From a virus: a stretch of 29,843 nt of DNA. Within the stretch, counting starts at the first letter, position 1, and the number at the start of each line of letters is the position of its first letter. The stretch spans positions 1 through 29,843 of IMG/VR virus record IMGVR_UViG_3300009285_004777, one strand, 5' to 3'. Positions 14,101 through 28,951 of this stretch are shown in pieces. A program made the position numbers and the translations under genes. The notes under the pieces were generated by a model. That model had not been told where the DNA came from, searched no databases, and was given only the letters and a program-made list of their open reading frames with translations.

Positions 14101-15004
14101 ATTATCTTTTATTGAAAAATTTTTAGGTAAAAGTAAATACAGCTCAAATACACGCGAGGCTCTGTTTTACTGTCCTTATTGCAAACATCATAAACCTAAG
14201 TTGTCCATTAATTTGGAAACTGATAAATGGCAATGTTTCCCTTGTGGCAAGAAAGGTGGAAGCTTATCGTCGTTAATAAAAGATTTTGGTAATTCTTCTT
14301 TATCATCACAATATTTTTCAGATTTTGTATCATCTTCTGTAAAGACTAAGTCATTTAAACCTGATGACATTCCTTTTTCATTGCCATTGCCTTCTGACTT
14401 TAGTTCGTTAGTTGATTGCCGGAATTCTTTAGTTGGCATAAATACATGGAATTATTTAGTTAATTTTCGCGGCTTAACAGAAGAAGATATTTTATTTTAT
14501 AAAATTGGTTTAACTAATGAAGGAATTTTGCTTCCATCTTTTAATGCAAAAGGAGAAGTTAATTTTTATACGATACGTCATTCCAATGGAGCGTATTTTT
14601 CTCCTGTTATTCCAAAGGGATATAAAAATACAATTATTCCTAATGAACTTAATATAGACTGGGAAAAGCCTGTTAAAATCGTAGAAGGATTTTTCGATAT
14701 GGTTAAATCAGGTGGTAATTCCATTCCTTTGTTTGGCAGTCTTTTATCTAAGAATTCAAAAATCTTTACTTCTTTGGTTCATCACCAATCTGCAGTATAT
14801 ATGGCGTTAGACACTGACGCTAAAGAAAAGTCATTGTCTATTGCTAGAAAATTTTTGAAGTTTGGATTGGATGTTTTTTATGTTGATATACGACCATTTA
14901 AAGACCCTGGTTTAATGACAAAAGATCAATTCAATGATTGTCTGCGTTTAGCCAAGCCTGTCACTAAAATTGATTTGTTTTTGCACAATCTTTGCTCGTT
15001 TTAG
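14084..15004 (+). CDS. DNA primase (DnaG type: zinc ribbon plus TOPRIM)
   Basis: A 306-residue primase. The N-terminal zinc ribbon uses Cys30-x2-Cys33 and Cys51-x2-Cys54 (CPYC, CFPCGKKGG), as in the CHC2 domain that recognises template DNA. The TOPRIM catalytic core follows: Glu201 in VEGFFD, with Asp205, and the Asp243-x-Asp245 pair in ALDTDA, which bind the metals for RNA primer synthesis. At 306 residues it is shorter than bacterial DnaG (about 580) and has no helicase domain, similar to T4 gp61 (342 aa). It begins inside the end of the RuvC-like gene, which implies coupled translation, and ends with a TAG, unusual in this TAA-dominated window. Confidence 0.85.
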   Translation: MNFLNKLSFIEKFLGKSKYSSNTREALFYCPYCKHHKPKLSINLETDKWQCFPCGKKGGSLSSLIKDFGNSSLSSQYFSDFVSSSVKTKSFKPDDIPFSLPLPSDFSSLVDCRNSLVGINTWNYLVNFRGLTEEDILFYKIGLTNEGILLPSFNAKGEVNFYTIRHSNGAYFSPVIPKGYKNTIIPNELNIDWEKPVKIVEGFFDMVKSGGNSIPLFGSLLSKNSKIFTSLVHHQSAVYMALDTDAKEKSLSIARKFLKFGLDVFYVDIRPFKDPGLMTKDQFNDCLRLAKPVTKIDLFLHNLCSF

Positions 15005-15012
15005 GTGTTTTT

Positions 15013-15681
15013 ATGCTTAAAGTTGCCCATCTTGCTGATACTCAAATTCGTAATTATGAGCGTCATGATGAATTTAGAAAAAGCTATGAAGCATTGTATG
15101 AATCTCTGCGCAAAGAAAATCCTGATTTAATTATTTTTGCTGGAGACCTAGCGCACAATAAGACTAGAATTTCTCCTGAATTAGTGCAGTTGTGCTCAGA
15201 ATATTTAAGAAATTTGTCGAAAATTGCTAAACTAATCGTGATTCCTGGAAACCATGACGGAATTGTTAATTCAACTACTCGTCTTGATGCGCTAACTCCA
15301 ATTGTTAATGCATTAAATAATCCAAGAATATTCTATTATAAAAATTCTGGCGTTTATCCGTGGAATCATCAAATTGATATTGTTGTGTTTTCTTGCTTTG
15401 ACAATGAAAGTTGTTGGCCTACAGAAAAAGACATAGATAGAGAAAAAATTAATATAGGAATTTATCACGGATTTGTTCAAGGGGCGTTTCTTCAAAATGG
15501 AATGGTGGTATCACCACATGAATGTAAGCATTCTGCTAATAGTTTTTTAAAATTAGTTGATTATTTATTTCTTGGCGATATTCATCAGTGCCAGTCTGTT
15601 GGTGATGTAGAGTATAATTATACAGAAATTGATGAATGTGACTTGCAATCTTATCTCAACAATGGCTGGGAATTGTATTGA
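15013..15681 (+). CDS. SbcD/gp47-like phosphoesterase, N-terminal fragment of a fractured gene
   Basis: The start ATG at 15013 follows TAGGTG. The 222 residues cover the SbcD/Mre11 metallophosphoesterase core: HLADTQ (Asp9), AGDLAHN (Asp45, His48), GNHD (80-82 region), YHGFVQGA (His152) and LGDIH (Asp189, His191). The fold then breaks off: after Gln192 a 30-residue tail (Cys193 to Tyr222) unlike SbcD ends in TGA, while the expected next segment (GS-x-x-QQ-x-x-GES) lies more than 1 kb downstream at the start of the 16592 gene. In motif I the usual D-x-H is D-x-Q (Gln11), so one metal ligand may be missing. The piece should still carry most active-site residues and presumably associates with the downstream product. 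T4 gp47, the intact counterpart, is 339 aa. Confidence 0.8.
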   Translation: MLKVAHLADTQIRNYERHDEFRKSYEALYESLRKENPDLIIFAGDLAHNKTRISPELVQLCSEYLRNLSKIAKLIVIPGNHDGIVNSTTRLDALTPIVNALNNPRIFYYKNSGVYPWNHQIDIVVFSCFDNESCWPTEKDIDREKINIGIYHGFVQGAFLQNGMVVSPHECKHSANSFLKLVDYLFLGDIHQCQSVGDVEYNYTEIDECDLQSYLNNGWELY

Positions 15682-15690
15682 ACTTTTTGG

Positions 15691-16608
15691 ATGTGTTCAA
15701 TCATGATGATTTGTAAAGTTTGCGGCAATCAAACAGCAAATAAATGTTATTGTTGTAAAGATTGTCAAATTTTGGATATAAGTCGTAAAACTGCTGTACG
15801 TATAAATAGAAAATGTTTATTTTGTGGTAGTGATTTCTTTATTAAAGAATGGGATTTAAAAGCAGGTAGGGGTAAATATTGCTCAAGAAAATGTAATGAT
15901 TGTCATAAGAAAATAACTTATTTGGGCACTAACAATCCAATGTATGGCAAATGTATTTCGGACATTCAAAAAGAATTAATATCAAATTCTCTTAAGAAAA
16001 AATGGCAAGACACAGAGTTTAGGGAAAAAGTTTTAAACGCACACTATAAAAGTTCTCATGTTATTTTTTCGTCTAGTGGATATTGGCCTGGAACTTCTCC
16101 AGATTCTATGGAAAAAAAGAAAAATACTTTTATTAGAAATTATGGTGTGCCCCATAATTGGTCTTGTGTAGAAGTTAGGGAAACGTGTGAAAAAACTTGT
16201 ATGGAAAGGTATGGAAAGTCTTCTTTAGACATGGCTCGTGAATCATCGTTTAAACCATTTACAAAAATAGAAAAAATAACTCAAGACATTTTAGAAAAAA
16301 ATAATATACAATATGAGAGAAATTATAAAATATGTTATGAAATAAATAAATATAAGCTGTATGATTTTTTTATTGTTGATAAAAATATTTTAATTGAGAT
16401 TGATGGTGATTATTGGCATGCAAATCCAGATATATTTTCGTTTTTAAATGATGTGCAGAAAAACAATATAAAAAATGATTTATTTAAAAACGAATTAGCG
16501 TCTAAAAATAGTTTACATTTATTAAGATTTTGGGAAACAGAAGTGTATAGTTGTGATTATGAAAACAATTTACTAGAAAAGATTTTTTCTTATGTCAAAA
16601 AAAATTAA
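15691..16608 (+). CDS. Homing endonuclease, Vsr-like (EDxHD) type, inserted in the sbcD-sbcC gene
   Basis: About 305 residues (MMICK starts at 15703 or 15706 are alternatives). The N-terminus has cysteine clusters (CKVC, CYCCKDC, CLFC, KYCSRKCNDC) of zinc-finger type, then NPMYGK (NUMOD3-like), then YG-centred repeats (NTFIRNYGVPHNW, TCMERYGKSSLDM) seen in phage homing nucleases. The C-terminal nuclease has the Vsr-like core: YDFFIVD...ILIEIDGDYWHAN with Glu236, Asp238, Asp240 and His243 (numbering from 15691), and LLRFWETEV. This matches the EDxHD family (I-Bth0305I type) described in introns and in 'fractured genes'. It sits between the two parts of SbcD, overlapping the second by 17 bases, and leaves no room for a group I intron core. 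It would cut intact sbcD alleles to spread. Confidence 0.8.
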   Translation: MCSIMMICKVCGNQTANKCYCCKDCQILDISRKTAVRINRKCLFCGSDFFIKEWDLKAGRGKYCSRKCNDCHKKITYLGTNNPMYGKCISDIQKELISNSLKKKWQDTEFREKVLNAHYKSSHVIFSSSGYWPGTSPDSMEKKKNTFIRNYGVPHNWSCVEVRETCEKTCMERYGKSSLDMARESSFKPFTKIEKITQDILEKNNIQYERNYKICYEINKYKLYDFFIVDKNILIEIDGDYWHANPDIFSFLNDVQKNNIKNDLFKNELASKNSLHLLRFWETEVYSCDYENNLLEKIFSYVKKN

Positions 16609-19186
16609 GCTTAGAAAAGCTAAACAAGCGAGAGCATGGTGGGTAGGCTCTTATCCGCAGCAGCACTACGGAGAATCTTTAGACAAAGGATATCTTATTT
16701 GGAACATCTATTCGAAAGATATGCATAAAGTAGACTTCATTAAACTTCCTAATGTATATCCATACTATACCATCGTTGTTGACGACGATTTAGATATTGC
16801 AAAAAACGGAGCCATTCAAACTCAGTCTAGAATTAGAATCCTTTCTAGAAGGTTAACAAACTTTGAAAAGAAACAAGTAACAGATAAGATTCAGTTGTTT
16901 TATGATCCAATTAGAATTGATATTGTTGATGACATCAATGCATCTCGTCAAACAATCGCAATAGACAATATTGGCAATACTATAGAAGATTTACATGACA
17001 TCGGCGTTCAAGAAAAACTTATTTCTGAATATTTTAAAGATTCCGATCTTAGTCAAGAAATGTTATTTTCTATATTTGATATTAATAAAAAGTACAATTC
17101 TTTATTTCAATCTGGCGAAGACATAGCAAGAAATGTCATTTATTCTTTTGGTCTTATGACTTGGAACAATACATTTAGTTTTGGAACAAATAATGAATTT
17201 GATTTTTCTAAACACAAAGGATCGGTAGGTGTTTTTGGCAAAAGTGCAAGTGGCAAAAGTTCTTTTGTTGTTGACAATCCATTGTACATAATGTGGAATA
17301 AGATTTCCAAAAAAGTTGCAAAAAATGATTTAATTATTAATGACAATTGTGATTTTTGTGATGGTTCTTTAGAGATTAATCTGTGTGACAAAACCTACAA
17401 TATATTTCGTAAAACATCGATATATTCAAAGTCAGGGAAAAGAAATGGTGCTCCTGTATTGCAGGGAAAGACAGAAGTTACTGTTTGCTGTAAGACTAAA
17501 GAAGGGGCCGTCATTCCAGTAGAAGGAGAAGAAAGAACTGTTATAGATAATTATATTAGATGTATCTTTGGTATTGCTGAAGACTTTATGTTAACTGCTA
17601 TAGCTCCTCAGTGGCAATTATTAAACTTTATAGATTCAGGAGCAACAGATCGACAAAAGCTTGTTGGTAAATATTTCGATATAGATTTCTTTTTCAAGAA
17701 GCATGATTTTGCTAAATCAGATCTAAAAGAAATCACTGGGAAAATTAAAAAATTTAAAGATAAAAACTTTGATATTTTGATACAACAATCTGAAGATTGT
17801 ATTGTTCAATTGAATGATAAATTAGGAATCAAAAATAAATGTCAACAAGAAACTTCTGATTTGTTGTCTAAGTTTCGACAGCAAATGTTTGCTTTAAAAT
17901 CTTCTATTAGTGATATCGATGTTTTATTTCCGGCTGTTCCACTGGAAGATCAAATTAGAGTGACAACTAAATCAACAGAAGAAGAGCAGCATTGTTTACA
18001 ACGTTATAAGCGTGATTTTGAAGACATACAAGCTCAAATAAAGAAAGATGAAGAGTCATTCAAGCTAGAAGAATTAAACAATCTTTCTGAAAAATATACT
18101 TTGTTGAATTCAGAAATGCAGATTTCTTATGGGAAACTACAGGCATTGAATAAACTGAATGTCAATATTTCGGAAGTTACAGAATCTCTTAAAAGAATGT
18201 TAAAGTATGAATGTTTAAATTATTCAAGTTGCTGTATGCTTAAAGAACATGATAGACATAAATCTAATTTAAAAAATTTAGAAACACAAAGAGAAGAGTT
18301 GCTTCCTGAGGCTGAAAAATATCATGAATTAGTCAAACTAGTATCTACAGTAAAAACACAAATTGCAAGTTTGCGCGACATACAGCAAAATATTTTTAAT
18401 AAAAAACAAAAAATTACTGTATATGAAAAAAAGATTTCAGAATCTTATAATATTATAAAACAATTTAATGACAAAATAGAATCTCTAACAAAATTGTTGC
18501 AAATGAAAAGTAAATATGTTTCGCAACATCAAGAATTAGAAAGTATTGTCAGCTCTATTAATGCATTAGAGCTGTCTGCAAAAGATGTGTCCAAAGAGGT
18601 ACTAAGTCTTACAAAACTACTTGGTTCTGAAGAACAAATTTTAAAAAATCTTGCAAGCGAAAAGAAAGAATTTCTTGACACCAAACAAGAATATGAAGCA
18701 TATGAATACTTTATGCGCGCCATGTCAAAAGATGGAATTGTAAAGAAAATTATTTCTAAAAATTTAGATATTATAAATATTGAAATTAATAAAGTATTGT
18801 CAAAATCAGTTGATTTCAGCGTAAATCTTATTTCTACTGATGACGGTAAAGCTATTGATATTGTGTTTCAGTACAAAAATGGCAAACAGAGACCAATAGA
18901 GCTGTGTTCTGGCATGGAAAAGACTTTTAGTGCTATTTCTATACGAGCTGCACTATTGAGTGTTACTACTCTTCCTAGACCTAATTTTATCGTACTTGAT
19001 GAATCATTTGGTGCTTTAGATTCAGAGTGTGTTGGCAGTGTTCAAAAAATGTTAGATTATTTAAAGACGTTATTTGATACGGTTATGATAATTACTCATG
19101 ATGAAACATTAAAAGATTTGGTAGACTATGTTGTTGATGTAGAAAAAGAAGATGGTGGATTTTCAACAATTAGGAGCTTTAATTAA
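16592..19186 (+). CDS. SbcD C-terminal capping region fused to SbcC/gp46-like ATPase (864 aa)
   Basis: Residues about 15-100 are not SbcC but the missing end of SbcD: WWVGSYPQQHYGESLDKGYLIW, then YPYYTIVVDDD. The SbcC/Rad50 ATPase follows: Walker A GKSASGKS (216-223), long coiled coils (about 380-720) with a cysteine-containing turn at 541-548 (C-x5-CC) where the zinc hook is expected, signature CSGMEKTF (772-779, in place of LSGGE), and Walker B IVLDESFGALD (Asp803, Glu804). With the 15013 product it would form a DNA-end and hairpin-processing complex used in recombination and replication. The natural ancestor was probably one SbcD-SbcC fusion polypeptide, now cut by the nuclease gene. The start ATG lies inside the nuclease gene and its ribosome site is weak. 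Confidence 0.85.
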   Translation: MSKKIKLRKAKQARAWWVGSYPQQHYGESLDKGYLIWNIYSKDMHKVDFIKLPNVYPYYTIVVDDDLDIAKNGAIQTQSRIRILSRRLTNFEKKQVTDKIQLFYDPIRIDIVDDINASRQTIAIDNIGNTIEDLHDIGVQEKLISEYFKDSDLSQEMLFSIFDINKKYNSLFQSGEDIARNVIYSFGLMTWNNTFSFGTNNEFDFSKHKGSVGVFGKSASGKSSFVVDNPLYIMWNKISKKVAKNDLIINDNCDFCDGSLEINLCDKTYNIFRKTSIYSKSGKRNGAPVLQGKTEVTVCCKTKEGAVIPVEGEERTVIDNYIRCIFGIAEDFMLTAIAPQWQLLNFIDSGATDRQKLVGKYFDIDFFFKKHDFAKSDLKEITGKIKKFKDKNFDILIQQSEDCIVQLNDKLGIKNKCQQETSDLLSKFRQQMFALKSSISDIDVLFPAVPLEDQIRVTTKSTEEEQHCLQRYKRDFEDIQAQIKKDEESFKLEELNNLSEKYTLLNSEMQISYGKLQALNKLNVNISEVTESLKRMLKYECLNYSSCCMLKEHDRHKSNLKNLETQREELLPEAEKYHELVKLVSTVKTQIASLRDIQQNIFNKKQKITVYEKKISESYNIIKQFNDKIESLTKLLQMKSKYVSQHQELESIVSSINALELSAKDVSKEVLSLTKLLGSEEQILKNLASEKKEFLDTKQEYEAYEYFMRAMSKDGIVKKIISKNLDIINIEINKVLSKSVDFSVNLISTDDGKAIDIVFQYKNGKQRPIELCSGMEKTFSAISIRAALLSVTTLPRPNFIVLDESFGALDSECVGSVQKMLDYLKTLFDTVMIITHDETLKDLVDYVVDVEKEDGGFSTIRSFN

Positions 19187-21088: not shown

Positions 21089-21679
21089 ATGCCACCTTCC
21101 AGAGCCACCAAAAAAGAATTAATAGCTGAAATTATTGCGTGCGGCCAAGATCCAGTTTATTTTATCAAAAAATATGCAAAGATTCAGCACCCTGTAAGAG
21201 GATTGATACCTTTTACTACCTATCCGTTCCAAGATGATATTATAAATGAATTAGTTCAGCATAAATTCAACATTATTCTGAAGGCACGTCAGCTTGGAGT
21301 GACTACTGTCAGTGCTGCTTATATTGCTTGGTTTATTCTATTCCATCGAGATAAAAATGTTTTAATTATTGCAACAAAGCGCGAAACTGCGCAAACAATG
21401 ATTAGAATAGTTAAAAATATTTTCAAATATCTACCAATTTGGATGTTGGACTTAGGGAAAATATTATTCAACAACAAACATAGTCTTGAATTGGCTAACG
21501 GTTCTCGCGTAAAAGCTATGTCTACTACAAGCGATGCTGGCCGTTCAGAGGCTGTATCGTTGCTGGTAGTTGATGAGTGTGTTGGAAAAGATACTGTTGT
21601 GCAAATTCGTAACAAAAATACAGGTGAAGTTAGAAATATTTCTATGGGCGAATTGTATTCTAACCATTACTATAAATAG
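21089..21679 (+). CDS. Terminase large subunit, N-terminal part, fused to split-intein N-part
   Basis: Residues 1-163 are the start of the TerL packaging ATPase. They include the common terminase P-loop variant KARQLGVTT (65-73), a GSRVKAMSTTSDAGRSEAV stretch, and Walker B LLVVDE with Asp162 and catalytic Glu163. Immediately after Glu163 comes Cys164, which opens a 33-residue intein N-fragment (CVGKDTVVQI...NISMGELY) ending in TAG. The next coding piece at 21719 is in the same reading phase, and 13 codons including TAG and TGA separate them. TerL therefore exists only after trans-splicing with the 21719 product. The upstream gene ends six bases earlier and the ribosome site is poor. The T4 counterpart is gp17. 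Confidence 0.88.
   Translation: MPPSRATKKELIAEIIACGQDPVYFIKKYAKIQHPVRGLIPFTTYPFQDDIINELVQHKFNIILKARQLGVTTVSAAYIAWFILFHRDKNVLIIATKRETAQTMIRIVKNIFKYLPIWMLDLGKILFNNKHSLELANGSRVKAMSTTSDAGRSEAVSLLVVDECVGKDTVVQIRNKNTGEVRNISMGELYSNHYYK
21578..21676 (+). other. Split-intein N-fragment (IntN) in TerL, 33 aa
   Basis: The fragment has intein block A: Cys1, Asp-Thr at 5-6, Val8 and an I-x-M-x-ELY end. It is inserted exactly between Walker B DE and the next extein residue of TerL. A 33-residue N-part with a long C-part is the layout of atypically split inteins such as AceL-TerL (25-residue N-part, also in a TerL gene). It contains the nucleophile of the first acyl shift. Confidence 0.88.
21671..21678 (+). 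promoter_or_regulatory. TATAAATA box between the two TerL pieces (possible late promoter)
   Basis: A perfect match to the T4 late promoter consensus, overlapping the IntN stop codon (TAT AAA TAG) and 40 bases ahead of the IntC ATG. It could give the downstream TerL piece its own transcript. About half a dozen chance matches are expected in a sequence this AT-rich, and others occur inside genes, so confidence is low. Confidence 0.25.
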
Positions 21680-21718
21680 TTGATCAAAAATGAACCAAAG
21701 GAATGAAACAATTTTTAT

Positions 21719-22045
21719 ATGAACAACTGTAAAAACATAGATGAATGGGAGGTTTTAACTCCAAGTGGTTGGAGTGATTTTTCAGCAATTAAAAAGGTTG
21801 AAAAGAATTGTTATTTGTCTATTGTGCTAAGTAATGACACTGTTTTTTTATGTTCAAAAGAACATAAGATAAAATTAAAAACTGGAAAATTTATATTTGC
21901 TGTCGATCTTTTGGCGGGAGACGAACTGGATAATGACATAAATGTTTCTTCTATTGAAAAAATATATTCTGATGTAGACTTATATGATTTAATTAATGTT
22001 GAAAAAAACAATGAATATTATACTGATAGTATAGTAAGCCACAAT
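21719..22045 (+). other. Split-intein C-fragment (IntC) in TerL, 109 aa
   Basis: Contains the block-B-like region after a W-x-VLTPSGW strand, KxHKIKLKTG with AxDLLAGDEL, block F-like LYDLINVEKNNEYYTDSIV, and the C-terminal SHN followed by Cys+1 of the extein. It has no endonuclease domain, so together with IntN it is a mini-intein of about 142 residues. The internal NVEK and VSHN|C features are those of AceL-TerL-type C-fragments. Confidence 0.87.
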
Positions 22046-24604
22046 TGTGCTCATATACCTGGATTTGAAGAACTTTGGACGGGATTGTGGCCCACATTAA
22101 GTTGCCTTTCTGGGGATACTAGAGTTATTACCAACAAGGGAATTAAAAAAATTGAGGATTTTTGCAAAGGTAAGAATGTTGGAGAATATTTTAAAATTGA
22201 TGGATTAGAAACTGTTGGTCTGAATGGCAAACTGGAAAATGTTTCTCATGGATACGTTTCTCCTGAGGGAGATACCTACAAGATAAAAACAAGAAAAGGA
22301 TTGGAGGTTGAAGTAACACATAATCATCCATTGTTTAAATTATGCTCTTGTGGTGGGAGTATGGTTCAGGCAAAAAAATTAAAAGTAGGCGATTTTTTGC
22401 GTGTAGATGTAGGGATGGATGTTTGGGGTGACCAATCTGTTTTTAACAATGGACAGAAGAGTTCTGGTCATTATTTGCCAACAGAAATAAATTTTGCCTA
22501 TATGCTCGGTGGATTTATTGCAGAAGGCTGGATTACAAATAATAATACCTTGATTGAGATTTCCAACCAGGATGATGAATTTAGAAATGTTTATTTAAAT
22601 AACAAAATTGTTAAAGAATTTGTTTCAAAAAACAATGATGAATGTAGGTTGCGCTGTTCTTCTGTTGAATTAGTTAATCTTTTCGTAAAAGCAGGAATAA
22701 ATCCTGAATGGAAGTGTGACACTAAGAGAGTGCCAGAAGGAATATGGTCTGCTCCTAAAATCGTGGTTTCTGAATTTCTTAAAGCTTATTTCGATGGAGA
22801 TGGCAGCGTAACTTCTTCGGGAATTATAGGGTCCAGCACTAGCGAGAAGCTTTTGCAAGACATTCAACAATTATTGTTAAATTTTGGTATAGTTTCTAAC
22901 GTTTTGAAAAATTCAATAGATAAGCAAAAACAATATGGAAGACTTATGCCTTCCGGGCAAGTACTTTCGTCTTTAAAAGATTCTTACACTTTGTCAGTCC
23001 CGAGATCCTTTTTTAAGAAATTTTCAGAAGAAATAGGATTTAAAATTGAACGAAAACAAAACCGATTGTTGCAGTTGGCAAATATCTACAAGAGCGACAC
23101 AAGAAAACAATTTAAGATTCCCTTAGTGGAAATTAGAGAGACAGTTATAAGAGTTTTGGCAAATACAACTAAAACGAAAAAATGGTTTAGAGAGAATGGT
23201 TTACGTATTGATAAGGTAAATAATGGAATTGAATTAAATAATGCTTGGTTTAAGCGGTTACTAGACATTGTTCAAGAGAACGACATTCCAGTTGGCTTTG
23301 AAAATAAAGAGTTTCTTCAAGAAATGACAATTTCTTGTTTTTGGGACGAAATTGTTTCTATTACTCCATCTAAAAATAAAACTTATGATTTTACAGTCCC
23401 TGGAACACATGCATTTTTACAAAATGGAATTGTTGGAAGTAACACAGGTGGCTCTGCTATTCTATTATCGACACCAAATGGAACTTCCAATTTCTTTCAC
23501 AAAGAATATATTCAAGCAAGAGATGGCATTACTTCTTTTAATTGCAGGTTTGGTACATATACAAATCCTCACAATCCTGATGAAATAGTTAGCGATAGGT
23601 TTCCTTGGTGGGTAAATCCTGATTGCGACATGACTTGGTTTGCTGCACAGACAGCAGGTAAAAATCCTCGCGATATTGCACAGGAATTTTTGTGCTCCTT
23701 TAATGCATCTGGCGATACTTTCATTGACCATGAAACTTTAAACTATCTTGAAAATGTTACTTATAATCCTGGCGAATGTTTTCCATCTAATAGAGAAGTT
23801 TGGATATGGGAACGTCCAAGAACTAATGGATTTTATTTGATTTCAGTAGACGTTTCTCGTGGCGACGCAACAGATTATTCAGCTTTTCATGTTGTTAGGT
23901 TGGACAGTAATCCTTTGGTTCAGGTGGCTGAATATAAAGGAAAAACAAGGCCAGATCAACTTGGGTGTCTATTGTATGAAGTTGGGAGTCATTACAATAA
24001 TGCAATTATAGCGCCAGAAAATAATTCAGGATGGTCTGGCCCAACAATTAATAAATTGAAAGAATTAGGGTATACAAATATTTATTATTCTAGGCGTAGA
24101 AATATAGGCTATAAAAAATCCATATATTCTGTTGACCCCTACGATGCTCAGAGACGGTATGATTATCTTCCAGGATATAGTATCACTGCTAACAATCGTT
24201 TAGAGATGTTGGCTAAAATGGAACAATATGTTCGACTAAGAGATATAATTATACATTCTCCAAGATTATTAGATGAATTTAAAACATTTATTGTTAATTT
24301 GAATAATAAACCAGAAGCTCAGAGAGGTTCTAATGATGATTTAGTAATGTCGTTAGCTGGCGGACTTTGGGTTAGAGACGAAGCATTTTTATATAGCTAC
24401 AGAACAGATGAAAATGCTCAATCTTTAATCTCTGGAATCAGTGTTTCTTCAAATACTACAAAAAATTTCAGAGATTTTAATTTTTCCAACAATAATTTTT
24501 ATGATAGAGGAAGAGTTCAAGAACATCTTGCTCAACAAAATAAGGTTGTGTTGGCTAATGGTGACGTAGAAGATATTAGTTGGTTGTTGCCAATATCAAA
24601 ATAA
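21719..24604 (+). CDS. Terminase large subunit, C-terminal part, with IntC and a second, LAGLIDADG intein
   Basis: A 961-residue precursor. Residues 1-109 are the split-intein C-part; 110-128 are TerL extein (CAHIPGF...); 129-575 are a contiguous intein with LAGLIDADG motifs; 576-961 are the rest of TerL. The last piece has STPNG (end of the ATPase) and an RNase H-fold nuclease with Asp711 (LISVDVSRGD), Glu767 (IIAPENN) and Asp873/Asp874 (NDDLVMSL). After splicing, TerL would have 163+19+386 = 568 residues, close to T4 gp17 (610). No good ribosome site lies at the ATG; AAAGGA is 16 bases away, so translation may be weak or coupled to a 10-codon reading frame (21690-21722) that overlaps the start. 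The portal gene follows after 21 bases. Confidence 0.88.
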   Translation: MNNCKNIDEWEVLTPSGWSDFSAIKKVEKNCYLSIVLSNDTVFLCSKEHKIKLKTGKFIFAVDLLAGDELDNDINVSSIEKIYSDVDLYDLINVEKNNEYYTDSIVSHNCAHIPGFEELWTGLWPTLSCLSGDTRVITNKGIKKIEDFCKGKNVGEYFKIDGLETVGLNGKLENVSHGYVSPEGDTYKIKTRKGLEVEVTHNHPLFKLCSCGGSMVQAKKLKVGDFLRVDVGMDVWGDQSVFNNGQKSSGHYLPTEINFAYMLGGFIAEGWITNNNTLIEISNQDDEFRNVYLNNKIVKEFVSKNNDECRLRCSSVELVNLFVKAGINPEWKCDTKRVPEGIWSAPKIVVSEFLKAYFDGDGSVTSSGIIGSSTSEKLLQDIQQLLLNFGIVSNVLKNSIDKQKQYGRLMPSGQVLSSLKDSYTLSVPRSFFKKFSEEIGFKIERKQNRLLQLANIYKSDTRKQFKIPLVEIRETVIRVLANTTKTKKWFRENGLRIDKVNNGIELNNAWFKRLLDIVQENDIPVGFENKEFLQEMTISCFWDEIVSITPSKNKTYDFTVPGTHAFLQNGIVGSNTGGSAILLSTPNGTSNFFHKEYIQARDGITSFNCRFGTYTNPHNPDEIVSDRFPWWVNPDCDMTWFAAQTAGKNPRDIAQEFLCSFNASGDTFIDHETLNYLENVTYNPGECFPSNREVWIWERPRTNGFYLISVDVSRGDATDYSAFHVVRLDSNPLVQVAEYKGKTRPDQLGCLLYEVGSHYNNAIIAPENNSGWSGPTINKLKELGYTNIYYSRRRNIGYKKSIYSVDPYDAQRRYDYLPGYSITANNRLEMLAKMEQYVRLRDIIIHSPRLLDEFKTFIVNLNNKPEAQRGSNDDLVMSLAGGLWVRDEAFLYSYRTDENAQSLISGISVSSNTTKNFRDFNFSNNNFYDRGRVQEHLAQQNKVVLANGDVEDISWLLPISK
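22103..23443 (+). other. Contiguous TerL intein with LAGLIDADG endonuclease, 447 aa
   Basis: Begins CLSGDTRVIT (block A) and has EVTHNHPLF (block B, T-x-x-H). Two LAGLIDADG-type motifs follow: MLGGFIAEGWI (262-272 of the precursor) and FLKAYFDGDGSV with Asp359/Asp361. It ends YDFTVPGTHAFLQNGIVGSN before Thr+1. The penultimate residue is Ser rather than the usual His. It lies only 19 extein residues after the split intein. The endonuclease would home into TerL genes lacking this intein. Confidence 0.9.
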
Positions 24605-24625: not shown

Positions 24626-27600
24626 ATGGCTGATTTCAATATTAAAAAATATTATGGTGATTTATCAAGTTTGTTCAAAACTAGTTCACCTGTCAAACAA
24701 CGAGTTTCTAATAAAATTGCAGCTCCTGGACAGGTGGGTGTTCCTGTTGGAACAGCTAGAGCATTTTTGCGACACGTCAATAATGCGTATCAGAGCGCAG
24801 TAGCTTCTTTTGGTACTTACAATAGGCTTGCAAGATATTCTGATTATTGCGAAATGGAATCAATGGCCGAAATTAGTAGTGGTCTTGACATTTATGCTGA
24901 TGAGTGTACTACTCATGATGAGAATGGCGACATTTTATCTATCATATCTCCAAATCCTGAAATTCGGAAATTATTAACTTTATTGTTTTATGATAATCTC
25001 AATGTTGAATTTAATCTATGGTCATGGGTGAGAAGCTTGTGTAAGTATGGTGATCAATTTCTTCTTGTTGATCACCATCCAGACTATGGTGTTCTTGATT
25101 TATTGCCTATGCCCGTTAATGAGGTTGAAAGAGAAGAGGGATTTAATCCTGAAAATCCATTAGAATATCGATATCGTTGGGTTACGCAAGGAAACAGAAC
25201 TATCGAACCTTGGGAGGTAATACACTTTAGAGTAATGGGAAATGAATCATTTCTGCCCTATGGAAGCTCTATTTTAGAAGCAGCCAGAAGAGTTTGGCGA
25301 CAACTTATTCTTATGGAAGATGCTGTTATGGTATATCGCATTGTAAGAAGTCCTGAACGTAGAGTGTTTTACATTGATGTTGGCAATGTTGCTCCTCAAG
25401 ATGTCGAAAAATATATGGAGCGCGTTAAAACACAATTGAAGAGAAATATGGTTGTATCGAGTGACACAGGCCGCGTTGATTTAAGATACAACCCTCTTCC
25501 GATTCATTATGCTACTCCTATTCCTCTTTTGGATGGTAGAACTATCACAATTAAAGAATTAGCACAAGAATATGATGACGGTAAAGAGAATTGGGTATAT
25601 TCCATCCAAGATGACAGTAAAAAAATCGTTCCGGGTAAAGTTGTATGGTGTGGTAAAAACTATAGCGCAAAAAAAATAACAAAAGTTACTTTAGATGATG
25701 GGACACATCTCCTAACGGCGCCAGAACATCCGTTTGTGTTGCGTGATGGATCTAGTAAAAGAGCAGATGAACTTTGTGTAAATGATGCTTTGATGCCTTT
25801 ATATAGGAATGAAGTTAAACTGACAAAGACTTCCGAATCTTTATATACAAAAGTGTACGACCCTTGCAGTAATAAATATTTGTTAATGCATAGAGTTGTT
25901 GCTAATAATGTATTGCAAGAAAAATTACATGAGGCCAAGAAAACTGTAGGATGTGATGATAATAAATATTTAGTTATACATCATAAAAATTTTAATTCTT
26001 TAAATAATTATCCTTCTAATTTGCAGTGGGTAGGCAATGCAGAGCATATGCGTTTCCATAAAGACCTAGGAAAGAAAGTATTTACAAGCTACAACAAAAC
26101 TGAAGAAAAAAGACTTAAAACAATAGAAGACAATAAAAAATATAAAAAAGCTCAGCACATGAATGAAGTTTATAATGGAACTGATTTACATAAAGAGCAC
26201 AATAAAATTAGAAGAAAAGCTCAATTGCAATCTTGGGAAAAAAATCGCGAGATGCGTTGTCGTACAATGTGTTGGGTTATTCCTGATGAATGTATTGAAT
26301 TAGGTAAGAAGCTGTGGATTGGCAACTCTAAACTTCATCGTGATGTATTTATAGAATTATTCAAAAAAGATCCAACGATTCGTGAATTACTGAAGCAAGC
26401 AAATGAAAAATTTGGAAGATCTATTGATAAACTATCAAGAACAGCAATCGAAAGACGCTTAAATGAATTGGGTTATTCTGGATTTAGAGAATATCGAACC
26501 GATTCTTTAAAGATTTCTGAATACAAAAATCACAAAGTATCTAAGGTAGAAGAAATAATATGCGAAGGTACAGATGTGTATTGTATGGCCGTTGTAGGTC
26601 CTGATGGAGAAGACGATAGACATAATTTTGCAGCGTGTTCTTTTGGAAATACTGACATGAAATGCTCTAAGTCCGCGATTTTATTGAGGAATTCCGTGGA
26701 CGAAGATTTTTATATTCCCCAAAGAGGAGCAGAAAGTAATTCTAGAATTGAAACATTACCAGGTGGTCAATTTACTGGCGATATCGAAGATCTAAGTTAT
26801 ATTCAAAGTTTTCGTGGCAACGTATTGGTGAAATTATTGGACAATACCAAAGATACCATAAAAAATATTGTTAATAGGATTAATAGTGGCGAAAGTTTGT
26901 GGACCTATTCTATCAATCCTGAAACATTGCATATTTCACCAAGTAAAATTATTGCTGGTCAAAATGTTGGGAAAAAGAATAATTTCATTAGAATTAATTT
27001 AGACAATGAAAAGCATATTGAAGTGACTGATGAACACTTGATGATTCTTAGCGATGGCCGATATATTCATGCTAAAGACTTAAAGCCTGGAGATTCTCTA
27101 AGCGCTCTGTATACTAAAGTTTCTTCAAAGATGAATAGAAATTATCTTGATGGATACGAAATGTTGTATCAGCCCGACAAGAATCGCTGGGACTATACTC
27201 ATCGAATAGTTGCAAAAGAATGTTTAAAAAAAGATTTATCTAAATCTAACGTTGTTCACCACACATCTTTTAATAAACTTAACAATAGTCCTGATTTTTT
27301 AAAGGTATTTGAAAATTCTAAATTACACAGAGATTTTCATGCTTCTGTAAATAAAGATAATAAAATTTATGTTGGAAATGGCAATCCTAACTTTAATTCA
27401 GAAGCAAATATAGAAACTTTATTGGGCGCAGCCCGATTGTCTAAGAATTTTTCTGAGTTAGTTAAAAGAACTGGATATACTCACTTTATTATTAGGCGCT
27501 TAGTTAATGACTTAGGTATGAATTATACTGAATTTCACAAAAAATATATGCAGTATAATCCATCTGTTTATTATTATTGTGGTTACAATTTAACTTTAGA

Positions 27601-28951
27601 TGACATAAAAGAAGTTATTCGTTTTCCAGAGATTAAAAGTGAAGTTGATGTTTGTAAGTTTCTTAGTTGTTCGGTGATGACTTTGAAGCCTATTTTGAAA
27701 AATAGTAATTATCGTGATTTTCGACAACTGTATGATGAAGTTAAAGGATTAACTTTTCAAAATATGGTTAATGTTGCATCTAATTGTTCAACACTTAAAG
27801 AAATTTCTTTAATTCTTGGATGCTCTGAAGGCAAATTGAAAAACTTATTGCATCTTAATGGATTCAAGACAGTTAAGGATTTTAGGAAAAAATTTGGAAT
27901 GAGGAAATATTCAACTCCTCAAATGTTTAAAAAAGGAATGGTTCCTCATAATAAAGTTGCTTTAAATCACAAAGTTGTTTCTGTAGAGTATTTAAACATC
28001 CAAGAAGATGCATATGATATACAGGTAGAGAAAAATAATAATTTCTCTGTAGATTGTGGCATTTTTGTTCATAATTCAAAACTTTTTGCAGCCTTGAAAA
28101 TACCTAAATCATACTTAGGGTACGAAGGCGAAATTGGAAGCAAGGCAACGCTGTCGCAAGAGGATATCCGGTTTTCTCGCACTATTCAACGTCTTCAAAG
28201 AGTTATCGTATCTGAGCTTAATAAAATTGCAGTTATTCATCTATACAGCAAAGGTTTTAAAAATTCAGATTTAGTTAATTTCGATATTCAATTAGCTAAC
28301 CCAAGCACTATTGCAGAAATGCAAAGACTAGAATTGTGGCGGACAAAATTTGAAGTTGCTGGTGTTGTTCAAGAAGGTATGTTTGATAAGAACTTTGTTT
28401 ACAGGCGTATTTGGAAATTGTCTGATTCTGAAATAGAACAAATCGAAGAGGGTCGTAAAAAAGATAAAATGTTTGATATGGAATTGGAAAATATTACAGT
28501 TGAACCTGCTGAAGAAGCAGCGCCTCTTGAAACCCCTCCCGAAGAACCGACTCCTGCAGGCGGTATAGAGGAACCTGCAGCAGCAGCGCCACCTACAGAG
28601 CCAGGATTGCCGCCGCCCCCTGGAGAAGCTGAGCCATTAACTGCCGGCAAAGATCCTAATGCTCAAATTGCTGCACCTAATGAGCTTATTAAACCTTTTG
28701 GAATTAAAAGGAAAAAGAAGTCAACTTTTCCTAATTTAAAAAATTATGTTTTTAATACCAAGAAAACTGCTCTTGATCATCACAGAAATTACAGTGAATT
28801 AAATAGATTTGCTAAAAATCCATTCGGGGAATGTGTAGAATCCGTTGAAGATAAAATATTTAATAAAAATTTAAATAAAATTGAAGAATTAGTAAATAAA
28901 TTAGAGTCTTTAGATAAGTTTAATAAAACAAAAAAGGTTATGTCTGATTAA
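24626..28951 (+). CDS. Portal protein (gp20-like) containing two inteins
   Basis: AGAAGGTG seven bases before the ATG is one of the best ribosome sites in the window. The 1441-residue precursor has exteins 1-291, 690-727 and 1151-1441, which join to a 620-residue portal (T4 gp20 is 524). Portal features are IYADECT, LDLLPMPVNEVEREEG, VIHFRVMGNESFLPYGSS, RRVFYIDVGNV, SVDEDFYIP followed by IETLPGG, and KIPKSYLGYEGEIGSKATLSQ. Both inteins sit in the most conserved portal stretches. The extein C-terminus adds a Pro/Ala/Glu-rich segment (about 1290-1350) not expected in T4 gp20. The portal forms the dodecameric ring through which TerL pumps DNA. It follows TerL, the opposite of T4's gene order 17-18-19-20 with two tail genes between. 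Confidence 0.9.
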   Translation: MADFNIKKYYGDLSSLFKTSSPVKQRVSNKIAAPGQVGVPVGTARAFLRHVNNAYQSAVASFGTYNRLARYSDYCEMESMAEISSGLDIYADECTTHDENGDILSIISPNPEIRKLLTLLFYDNLNVEFNLWSWVRSLCKYGDQFLLVDHHPDYGVLDLLPMPVNEVEREEGFNPENPLEYRYRWVTQGNRTIEPWEVIHFRVMGNESFLPYGSSILEAARRVWRQLILMEDAVMVYRIVRSPERRVFYIDVGNVAPQDVEKYMERVKTQLKRNMVVSSDTGRVDLRYNPLPIHYATPIPLLDGRTITIKELAQEYDDGKENWVYSIQDDSKKIVPGKVVWCGKNYSAKKITKVTLDDGTHLLTAPEHPFVLRDGSSKRADELCVNDALMPLYRNEVKLTKTSESLYTKVYDPCSNKYLLMHRVVANNVLQEKLHEAKKTVGCDDNKYLVIHHKNFNSLNNYPSNLQWVGNAEHMRFHKDLGKKVFTSYNKTEEKRLKTIEDNKKYKKAQHMNEVYNGTDLHKEHNKIRRKAQLQSWEKNREMRCRTMCWVIPDECIELGKKLWIGNSKLHRDVFIELFKKDPTIRELLKQANEKFGRSIDKLSRTAIERRLNELGYSGFREYRTDSLKISEYKNHKVSKVEEIICEGTDVYCMAVVGPDGEDDRHNFAACSFGNTDMKCSKSAILLRNSVDEDFYIPQRGAESNSRIETLPGGQFTGDIEDLSYIQSFRGNVLVKLLDNTKDTIKNIVNRINSGESLWTYSINPETLHISPSKIIAGQNVGKKNNFIRINLDNEKHIEVTDEHLMILSDGRYIHAKDLKPGDSLSALYTKVSSKMNRNYLDGYEMLYQPDKNRWDYTHRIVAKECLKKDLSKSNVVHHTSFNKLNNSPDFLKVFENSKLHRDFHASVNKDNKIYVGNGNPNFNSEANIETLLGAARLSKNFSELVKRTGYTHFIIRRLVNDLGMNYTEFHKKYMQYNPSVYYYCGYNLTLDDIKEVIRFPEIKSEVDVCKFLSCSVMTLKPILKNSNYRDFRQLYDEVKGLTFQNMVNVASNCSTLKEISLILGCSEGKLKNLLHLNGFKTVKDFRKKFGMRKYSTPQMFKKGMVPHNKVALNHKVVSVEYLNIQEDAYDIQVEKNNNFSVDCGIFVHNSKLFAALKIPKSYLGYEGEIGSKATLSQEDIRFSRTIQRLQRVIVSELNKIAVIHLYSKGFKNSDLVNFDIQLANPSTIAEMQRLELWRTKFEVAGVVQEGMFDKNFVYRRIWKLSDSEIEQIEEGRKKDKMFDMELENITVEPAEEAAPLETPPEEPTPAGGIEEPAAAAPPTEPGLPPPPGEAEPLTAGKDPNAQIAAPNELIKPFGIKRKKKSTFPNLKNYVFNTKKTALDHHRNYSELNRFAKNPFGECVESVEDKIFNKNLNKIEELVNKLESLDKFNKTKKVMSD
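25499..26692 (+). other. Portal intein 1, starts with proline, HNH endonuclease, 398 aa
   Basis: Placed by the extein junction NPL|...|SVDEDF. Residue 1 is Pro (292 of the precursor), and the Thr of block A falls at position 6 as in Cys1 inteins (PIHYATPIPLLDGRT). Block B is LTAPEHPF. The HNH nuclease has His452-His453, Asn461/Asn465 and His474/His478. Block F has Cys653 (DVYCMAV) where Asp is usual, and the end is LLRN before Ser+1, with Arg as penultimate residue. Loss of the N-terminal nucleophile with a block F cysteine is the hallmark of class 3-type inteins. Confidence 0.85.
26807..28075 (+). other. Portal intein 2, serine nucleophile, HNH-like endonuclease, 423 aa
   Basis: Lies between LSYIQ and SKLFAALKIP. 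It starts SFRGNVLVKLLDN (Ser1) and has block B EVTDEHLM, then KDLKPGDSL, then an HNH-like region with His878-His879, Asn886/Asn887 and His901/His905. Repeated helical segments of NUMOD type follow, then block F YDIQVEKNNNFSV, and the end is GIFVHN before Ser+1. All canonical splice residues are present, so it should splice by the class 1 route. Confidence 0.87.

What the first reader, a model, noticed from the sequence alone, without database searches (positions are those of the whole stretch)
21578..22045. Atypically split intein breaks the terminase ATPase exactly after the Walker B glutamate
Seen: TerL stops 33 residues after its Walker B DE, in a segment with intein block A. The missing ATPase/nuclease part restarts at 21719 behind 109 residues ending SHN|Cys, and the exteins join perfectly (DE|CAHIPGF). 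Known: AceL-TerL has the same host gene and the same short-N/long-C layout. Inferred: active TerL forms only by trans-splicing. A new natural pair of this rare class is useful and raises the question of why a packaging motor tolerates it.
Basis: partly seen in the sequence, partly recalled or inferred. Interest (0 to 1): 0.92.

Follow-up and report, generated by a model that had tools for sequence, protein, structure and literature searches.

The report
Split intein in phage packaging motor
A virus gene for the DNA-packaging motor is broken in two, and each broken end carries half of a self-splicing protein (an intein) that should rejoin the pieces; this is a new example of a known arrangement that proves common in phages, and the short gap between the halves looks like the scar of a lost nuclease gene.

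Summary
TerL stops 33 residues after its Walker B DE (21578-21676, TAG). A second ORF starts at 21719 with a 109-residue C-intein ending SHN|C. The joined exteins, minus a second contiguous intein, give 568 residues. Sequence and predicted fold place it with the atypically split inteins (Cat 6dsl, VidaL 6vgv), cut after the first helix like AceL-TerL. Trans-splicing is inferred, not shown.

The class is not rare: 92 cultured-phage records and over 200 IMG/VR loci encode relatives, nearly all of those examined in TerL. AceL-like inteins in IMG/VR (recognised partly from memory) sit at another TerL site. The window's site (DE|CA) is shared with phiR1-RT, HY03, JK32, Campylobacter Fletchervirus and others, as contiguous, compact-split, nuclease-interrupted and genome-dispersed forms.

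New here: the 39-nt gap matches the 3' end of a TnsA-like nuclease gene that sits in this gap in relatives (...KGMKQFL; 0 of 5000 shuffles as good). The window pair therefore looks like a fractured gene that lost its nuclease but stayed split. Verdict: new member of a known kind, moderately interesting.

The parts
21089..21577 (+). TerL N-extein, 163 aa, ends at Walker B ...LLVVDE
   Evidence: (Terminase_6N PF03237 E=1.8e-7)
21578..21679 (+). IntN (33 aa, block A C-V-G-K-D-T) and TAG stop
21680..21718 (+). 39-nt gap; aligns over almost its whole length with the last nucleotides of the gap-nuclease gene of L144; carries remnant AAAGGAATGAAACAATTTTTAT (KGMKQFL) and in-frame TGA 21704-21706
21719..22045 (+). 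IntC, 109 aa, own ATG, ends SHN
22046..22102 (+). TerL middle extein CAHIPGFEELWTGLWPTLS (19 aa)
22103..23443 (+). second, contiguous TerL intein (447 aa) with LAGLIDADG domain, CLSGDT...GIVGSN|TGG
   Evidence: (Intein_splicing PF14890, LAGLIDADG_3 PF14528)
23444..24604 (+). TerL C-extein (386 aa; nuclease domain) and TAA

Best explanation
TerL is made from two separately translated proteins. TerL(1-163)-IntN (33 aa) and IntC (109 aa)-TerL(164-568 plus a second, contiguous intein) associate, fold into one Hint domain, and trans-splice to join ...LVVDE to CAHIPGF...; the second intein cis-splices, giving a 568-aa ATPase-nuclease. The break lies after the first intein helix, as in AceL-TerL. The 39-nt gap is the remnant of a TnsA-like nuclease gene that relatives still carry there: the nuclease was deleted but the split stayed. 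Shown here: sequence anatomy, homology, predicted fold, nuclease-gene similarity of the gap. Inferred: expression of both halves, trans-splicing, order of events.
For: IntC best solved relatives are CatC (E=1e-11), VidaL and gp41-1. AF2 of the read-through intein: pLDDT 89.6, pTM 0.81, IntN 90-97, low confidence only in the linker around residues 31-50; Foldseek top hits VidaL (1.7e-8) and Cat (2e-7). The same site DE|CA carries contiguous inteins (L006, L013, L032, L046), compact splits (window, L031, L033, L073), nuclease-interrupted splits (phiR1-RT, HY03, PspYZU05, JK32, L052, L116, L119, L121, L122, L128, L129, L131-L133) and unlinked halves (Campylobacter phage NCTC12673: N half at 46 kb minus strand, C half at 73 kb plus strand). 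The unlinked form in cultured phages means trans-joining, not read-through, must work at this site in relatives. Gap scar: nuclease C-termini ...SMKQFL*/...KGMKQFL* lie directly on the IntC start (L128, L129, L144); the window gap scores 44 against L144, and 0 of 5000 dinucleotide shuffles reach that over 20 loci.
Against: No splicing assay. The IntC start has only a weak Shine-Dalgarno-like AAAGGA about 16 nt upstream. The nearest relative by path, L032, is contiguous, so the order (contiguous to split, or split to re-fused) is unresolved; the intein tree is weakly supported. The window is a 29.8-kb fragment, so another TerL elsewhere is not excluded. The scar homology rests on about 39 nt; the first test against 30 gap nucleases of all families gave 16 of 2000 shuffles, and the stronger value came after sampling the specific family.
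Confidence: 0.87

Rival explanations
1. A contiguous mini-intein broken by assembly or sequencing error: the true gene is one frame, and splicing is in cis.
For: Both halves are in the same frame and the closest relative L032 is contiguous; no second record confirms the stops.
Against: Two in-frame stops, about 33 extra nt against L032, and the extra bases resemble a nuclease gene end found at this exact place in relatives. Many independent relatives are split here.
Confidence: 0.05
2. Stop-codon read-through or recoding joins the halves, so the intein works in cis.
For: Same frame, only two stops, TAG and TGA; the read-through protein folds well in prediction.
Against: TAG and TGA end other genes in the window, long ORFs elsewhere are open under the standard code, no suppressor tRNA in the window; IntC has its own ATG; relatives have frame-shifted or unlinked halves.
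Confidence: 0.04
3. A decaying gene: the halves no longer splice and this virus (or this allele) is defective or uses another TerL.
For: The gap nuclease is already lost; the window is a fragment without the rest of the genome.
Against: All splicing blocks and both extein halves are intact, open over about 1,150 residues, with conserved C1, block-B His, HN and Cys+1.
Confidence: 0.04

Closest known systems
AceL-TerL / Cat (atypically split TerL inteins, S2 split site)
   Same: Host gene TerL; short IntN (25-30 aa vs 33), about 104-109 aa IntC; break after helix 1; IntC homologous to CatC.
   Different: AceL-like loci here (L089, L091) lie at E|CEFLGS near the start of the nuclease domain, not at Walker B. 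That L089/L091 encode AceL-TerL itself rests on the 25-aa IntN length and my memory of its sequence.
gp17 split inteins of cultured T4-like phages (Yersinia phiR1-RT, Escherichia HY03, Shigella JK32, Pseudomonas PspYZU05)
   Same: Same insertion point DE|CAFI, same short IntN/long IntC split.
   Different: These keep a TnsA-like nuclease ORF in the gap or fused to the N half (tested for phiR1-RT and JK32); the window keeps only a 39-nt remnant.
Aeromonas phage PX29 17A/17B (annotated N-intein / GIY-YIG plus C-intein)
   Same: TerL broken by a split intein; already noted by its annotators.
   Different: Other TerL site (..|CCRFMGTSGTL) and a GIY-YIG nuclease.
Fractured genes with gap-encoded homing endonucleases (canonical split inteins, Dassa et al. 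2009; from my knowledge)
   Same: Split intein with a nuclease gene between the halves; the same nuclease family occurs in a canonically split helicase intein (L137, L139, L145).
   Different: The window has no nuclease and an atypical split position.
VidaL
   Same: Atypical short IntN, top Foldseek hit.
   Different: Split at S1 after strand 2, 16-aa IntN (PMC13014065).

Membership tests
Atypically split intein | IntN much shorter than IntC (natural range 15-37 aa, PMC13014065) | tested here: met
   33 aa vs 109 aa
Atypically split intein | Break at S1 or S2; S2 = after helix 1 | tested here: met
   AF2 helix 23-36, natural stop after intein residue 33, low-confidence linker follows; so the break falls at the end of the helix
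Atypically split intein | Sequence or fold relationship to AceL/Cat/VidaL | tested here: met
   CatC E=1e-11; Foldseek VidaL 1.7e-8, Cat 2.1e-7
Class 1 intein splicing domain | Cys1, block B His, penultimate His-Asn, Cys+1 | tested here: met
   C1, H49 of IntC invariant, H108-N109, C+1
Class 1 intein splicing domain | Splicing activity in trans | not testable with these tools
   needs co-expression
AceL-TerL allele (same insertion site) | Insertion at the E|CEFLGS site of TerL | tested here: not met
   window inserts at DE|CAHIPGF
Nuclease-carrying fractured gene | Homing-type nuclease ORF between the halves | tested here: not met
   gap is 39 nt; only a 3' remnant resembling the nuclease gene
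T4-type TerL | Terminase_6N ATPase and complete extein with C-terminal nuclease domain | tested here: met
   PF03237 E=1.8e-7; joined product aligns to Mel-JY01 TerL along its length

The most novel reading that the evidence does not exclude
The TnsA-like gap nuclease family spreads split inteins specifically to Walker B DE|C codons of different phage ATPases (TerL and a helicase seen here, perhaps a clamp loader). After losing the nuclease the gene cannot easily re-fuse, so the split is a ratchet; the window would be a captured step, with TerL assembly made dependent on two proteins meeting.
Probability: 0.3. Interest if true: 0.65.

Novelty: new member of a known kind. Interest (0 to 1): 0.45.

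Why it matters
It adds a natural S2-split intein pair at the TerL Walker B site, useful as a candidate ligation tool. More generally, one insertion site now shows contiguous, compact-split, nuclease-interrupted and genome-dispersed forms, so how inteins become split, and whether they can re-fuse, becomes testable with defined natural alleles. It also shows that an essential packaging ATPase is repeatedly built from pieces.

Tried and rejected
Read-through and recoding (stop usage, tRNA scan). A group I/II intron in the gap (39 nt; Rfam finds only a tRNA in the window). Near relatives of the TerL or of the junction DNA to verify the stops: none. Cellular genomes: only one partial match (48 of 109 residues), so the family appears viral. 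First shuffle test over 30 mixed nucleases was only moderate, so I sampled the specific nuclease family and repeated it. Paper search for the AceL IntN string found nothing. The intein tree separates sites in part but cannot resolve the order of splitting.

Full report
Observation. Searches confirm the anatomy letter for letter. TerL ORF 21089-21679 runs through Walker B (LLVVDE) into 33 residues beginning CVGKDT and stops at TAG. A new ORF begins at ATG 21719, in the same frame, with 109 residues ending DSIVSHN followed by CAHIPGFEELW. Between them lie 39 nt with a second in-frame stop (TGA 21704-21706). The same downstream ORF contains a second, contiguous intein with a LAGLIDADG domain (22103-23443).

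Identity. IntC matches the solved consensus atypically split intein CatC (6dsl, E=1e-11), then VidaL and gp41-1. Translating the two stops as residues and aligning with 31 intein sequences from IMG/VR loci, AlphaFold2 gives a confident Hint fold (pLDDT 89.6, pTM 0.81), with low confidence only in the linker after helix 1; Foldseek ranks VidaL and Cat first. PMC13014065 states that natural atypical IntN fragments are 15-37 aa and that AceL-TerL and GOS-TerL are cut after helix alpha-1 (S2). The window fits both.

Prevalence. tblastn with IntC finds 92 cultured-phage records; the annotated matches listed are nearly all terminase genes (PX29's is annotated as a homing endonuclease with C-intein). 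One alignment-based scan of IMG/VR gives 213 loci that encode a relative, 80 kept. In the kept loci the inteins sit at several TerL sites: Walker A (GK|TT), just before Walker B, after Walker B (DE|CA), near STP, and at the start of the nuclease domain (E|CEFLGS). L089 and L091 carry an IntN that I recognise as AceL-TerL's, at the last of these sites, so AceL is not an allele of the window's insertion.

The same site in other phages. At DE|CA the intein is contiguous in L032, L046, Nitratidesulfovibrio phage SRB7757 (L006) and Vibrio phage VmeM-32 (L013); split compactly in the window, L031, L033, L073; split with a nuclease ORF in phiR1-RT, HY03, PspYZU05, JK32/TB34 and many IMG/VR loci; and in Campylobacter Fletchervirus the halves are unlinked (NCTC12673: N half ...LIFIDE|CVAGDTKITV at 46.0-46.6 kb minus strand, C half ...NNFVSHN|CAFID at 72.9 kb plus strand). 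The unlinked arrangement cannot be rescued by read-through, which supports trans-splicing at this site by analogy. On the intein tree the architectures are interspersed (window with contiguous L032, support 81; compact L033 with nuclease-bearing L058, support 99), so splitting or re-fusion probably happened repeatedly, but the tree is weak.

The scar. L052's gap nuclease ends ...HPQLHRSMKQFLCK* across the IntC start. Relatives of that nuclease (TnsA-like, PF08722, in L128 and L144; 36 IMG/VR loci) end ...SMKQFL* (L128, L129) or ...KKGMKQFL* (L144), with the stop overlapping the IntC ATG as ATGA. The window gap reads AAAGGAATGAAACAATTTTTATATGA, that is KGMKQFL with two extra nt, and aligns over nearly all of its 39 nt to the end of the L144 gene (score 44; none of 5000 shuffles over 20 loci, best shuffle 40). 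An earlier test against 30 mixed gap nucleases gave 16 of 2000. L144 itself is cut off shortly after the IntC start and its N half was not placed exactly at DE|CA, so it shows the nuclease end and not the whole allele. I conclude that the gap is probably the remnant of a deleted nuclease gene.

Function. Steps shown: two ORFs, intact splicing motifs, homology, predicted fold, gap remnant. Steps inferred: both proteins made; association; trans-splicing; cis-splicing of the second intein; active motor. A possible expression route is termination at 21679, a mini-ORF 21690-21722 whose TGA overlaps the IntC ATG, and re-initiation at 21719; this is a guess.

Status. A new member of a known kind.

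Noticed in passing
Salicola phage SCTP-2 MF360958 (L111, L112, L004): TerL appears encoded in three separate places (about 429.5 kb minus, 256.4-257.3 kb plus, 216-218 kb minus): two split inteins would have to act, plus a contiguous intein at S|TGG like the window's second one.
   Followed up: partly
L005, L016, L022, L025-L027: Campylobacter Fletchervirus TerL halves with IntN and IntC lie on opposite strands, tens of kb apart (about 26 kb in NCTC12673).
   Followed up: partly
L137, L139, L145, L146, L147: The same TnsA-like gap nuclease family also sits in canonically split inteins in a helicase-like gene, again exactly after a DE|C; L151 may be a clamp-loader case.
   Followed up: partly
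window 14992-16700: SbcD/gp47-like gene breaks off after GDIHQCQ; a nuclease-like ORF (weak DUF7487) 15691-16608 follows, and the rest of SbcD (ARAWWVGSYPQQ...) heads the next ORF 16592-19186. No intein or Rfam intron seen; Microcystis phage Mel-JY01 aligns across the break in one piece.
   Followed up: partly
window 24626-28951: T4-like portal gene carries two contiguous inteins, with an HNH domain in the first; the first begins oddly (no obvious Cys/Ser at residue 1: NPL|PIHYATPIPLLDG?).
   Followed up: no
window 21284-21310: TerL Walker A reads ARQLGVTT without the usual Lys; L032 (SRQLGLSTT) and Mel-JY01 (SRQMGIST) lack it too, so it seems a family trait.
   Followed up: no
L048, L049, L050, L051: Some IMG/VR TerL genes seem to carry two or three related inteins each, at Walker A, Walker B and nuclease-domain sites.
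   Followed up: no
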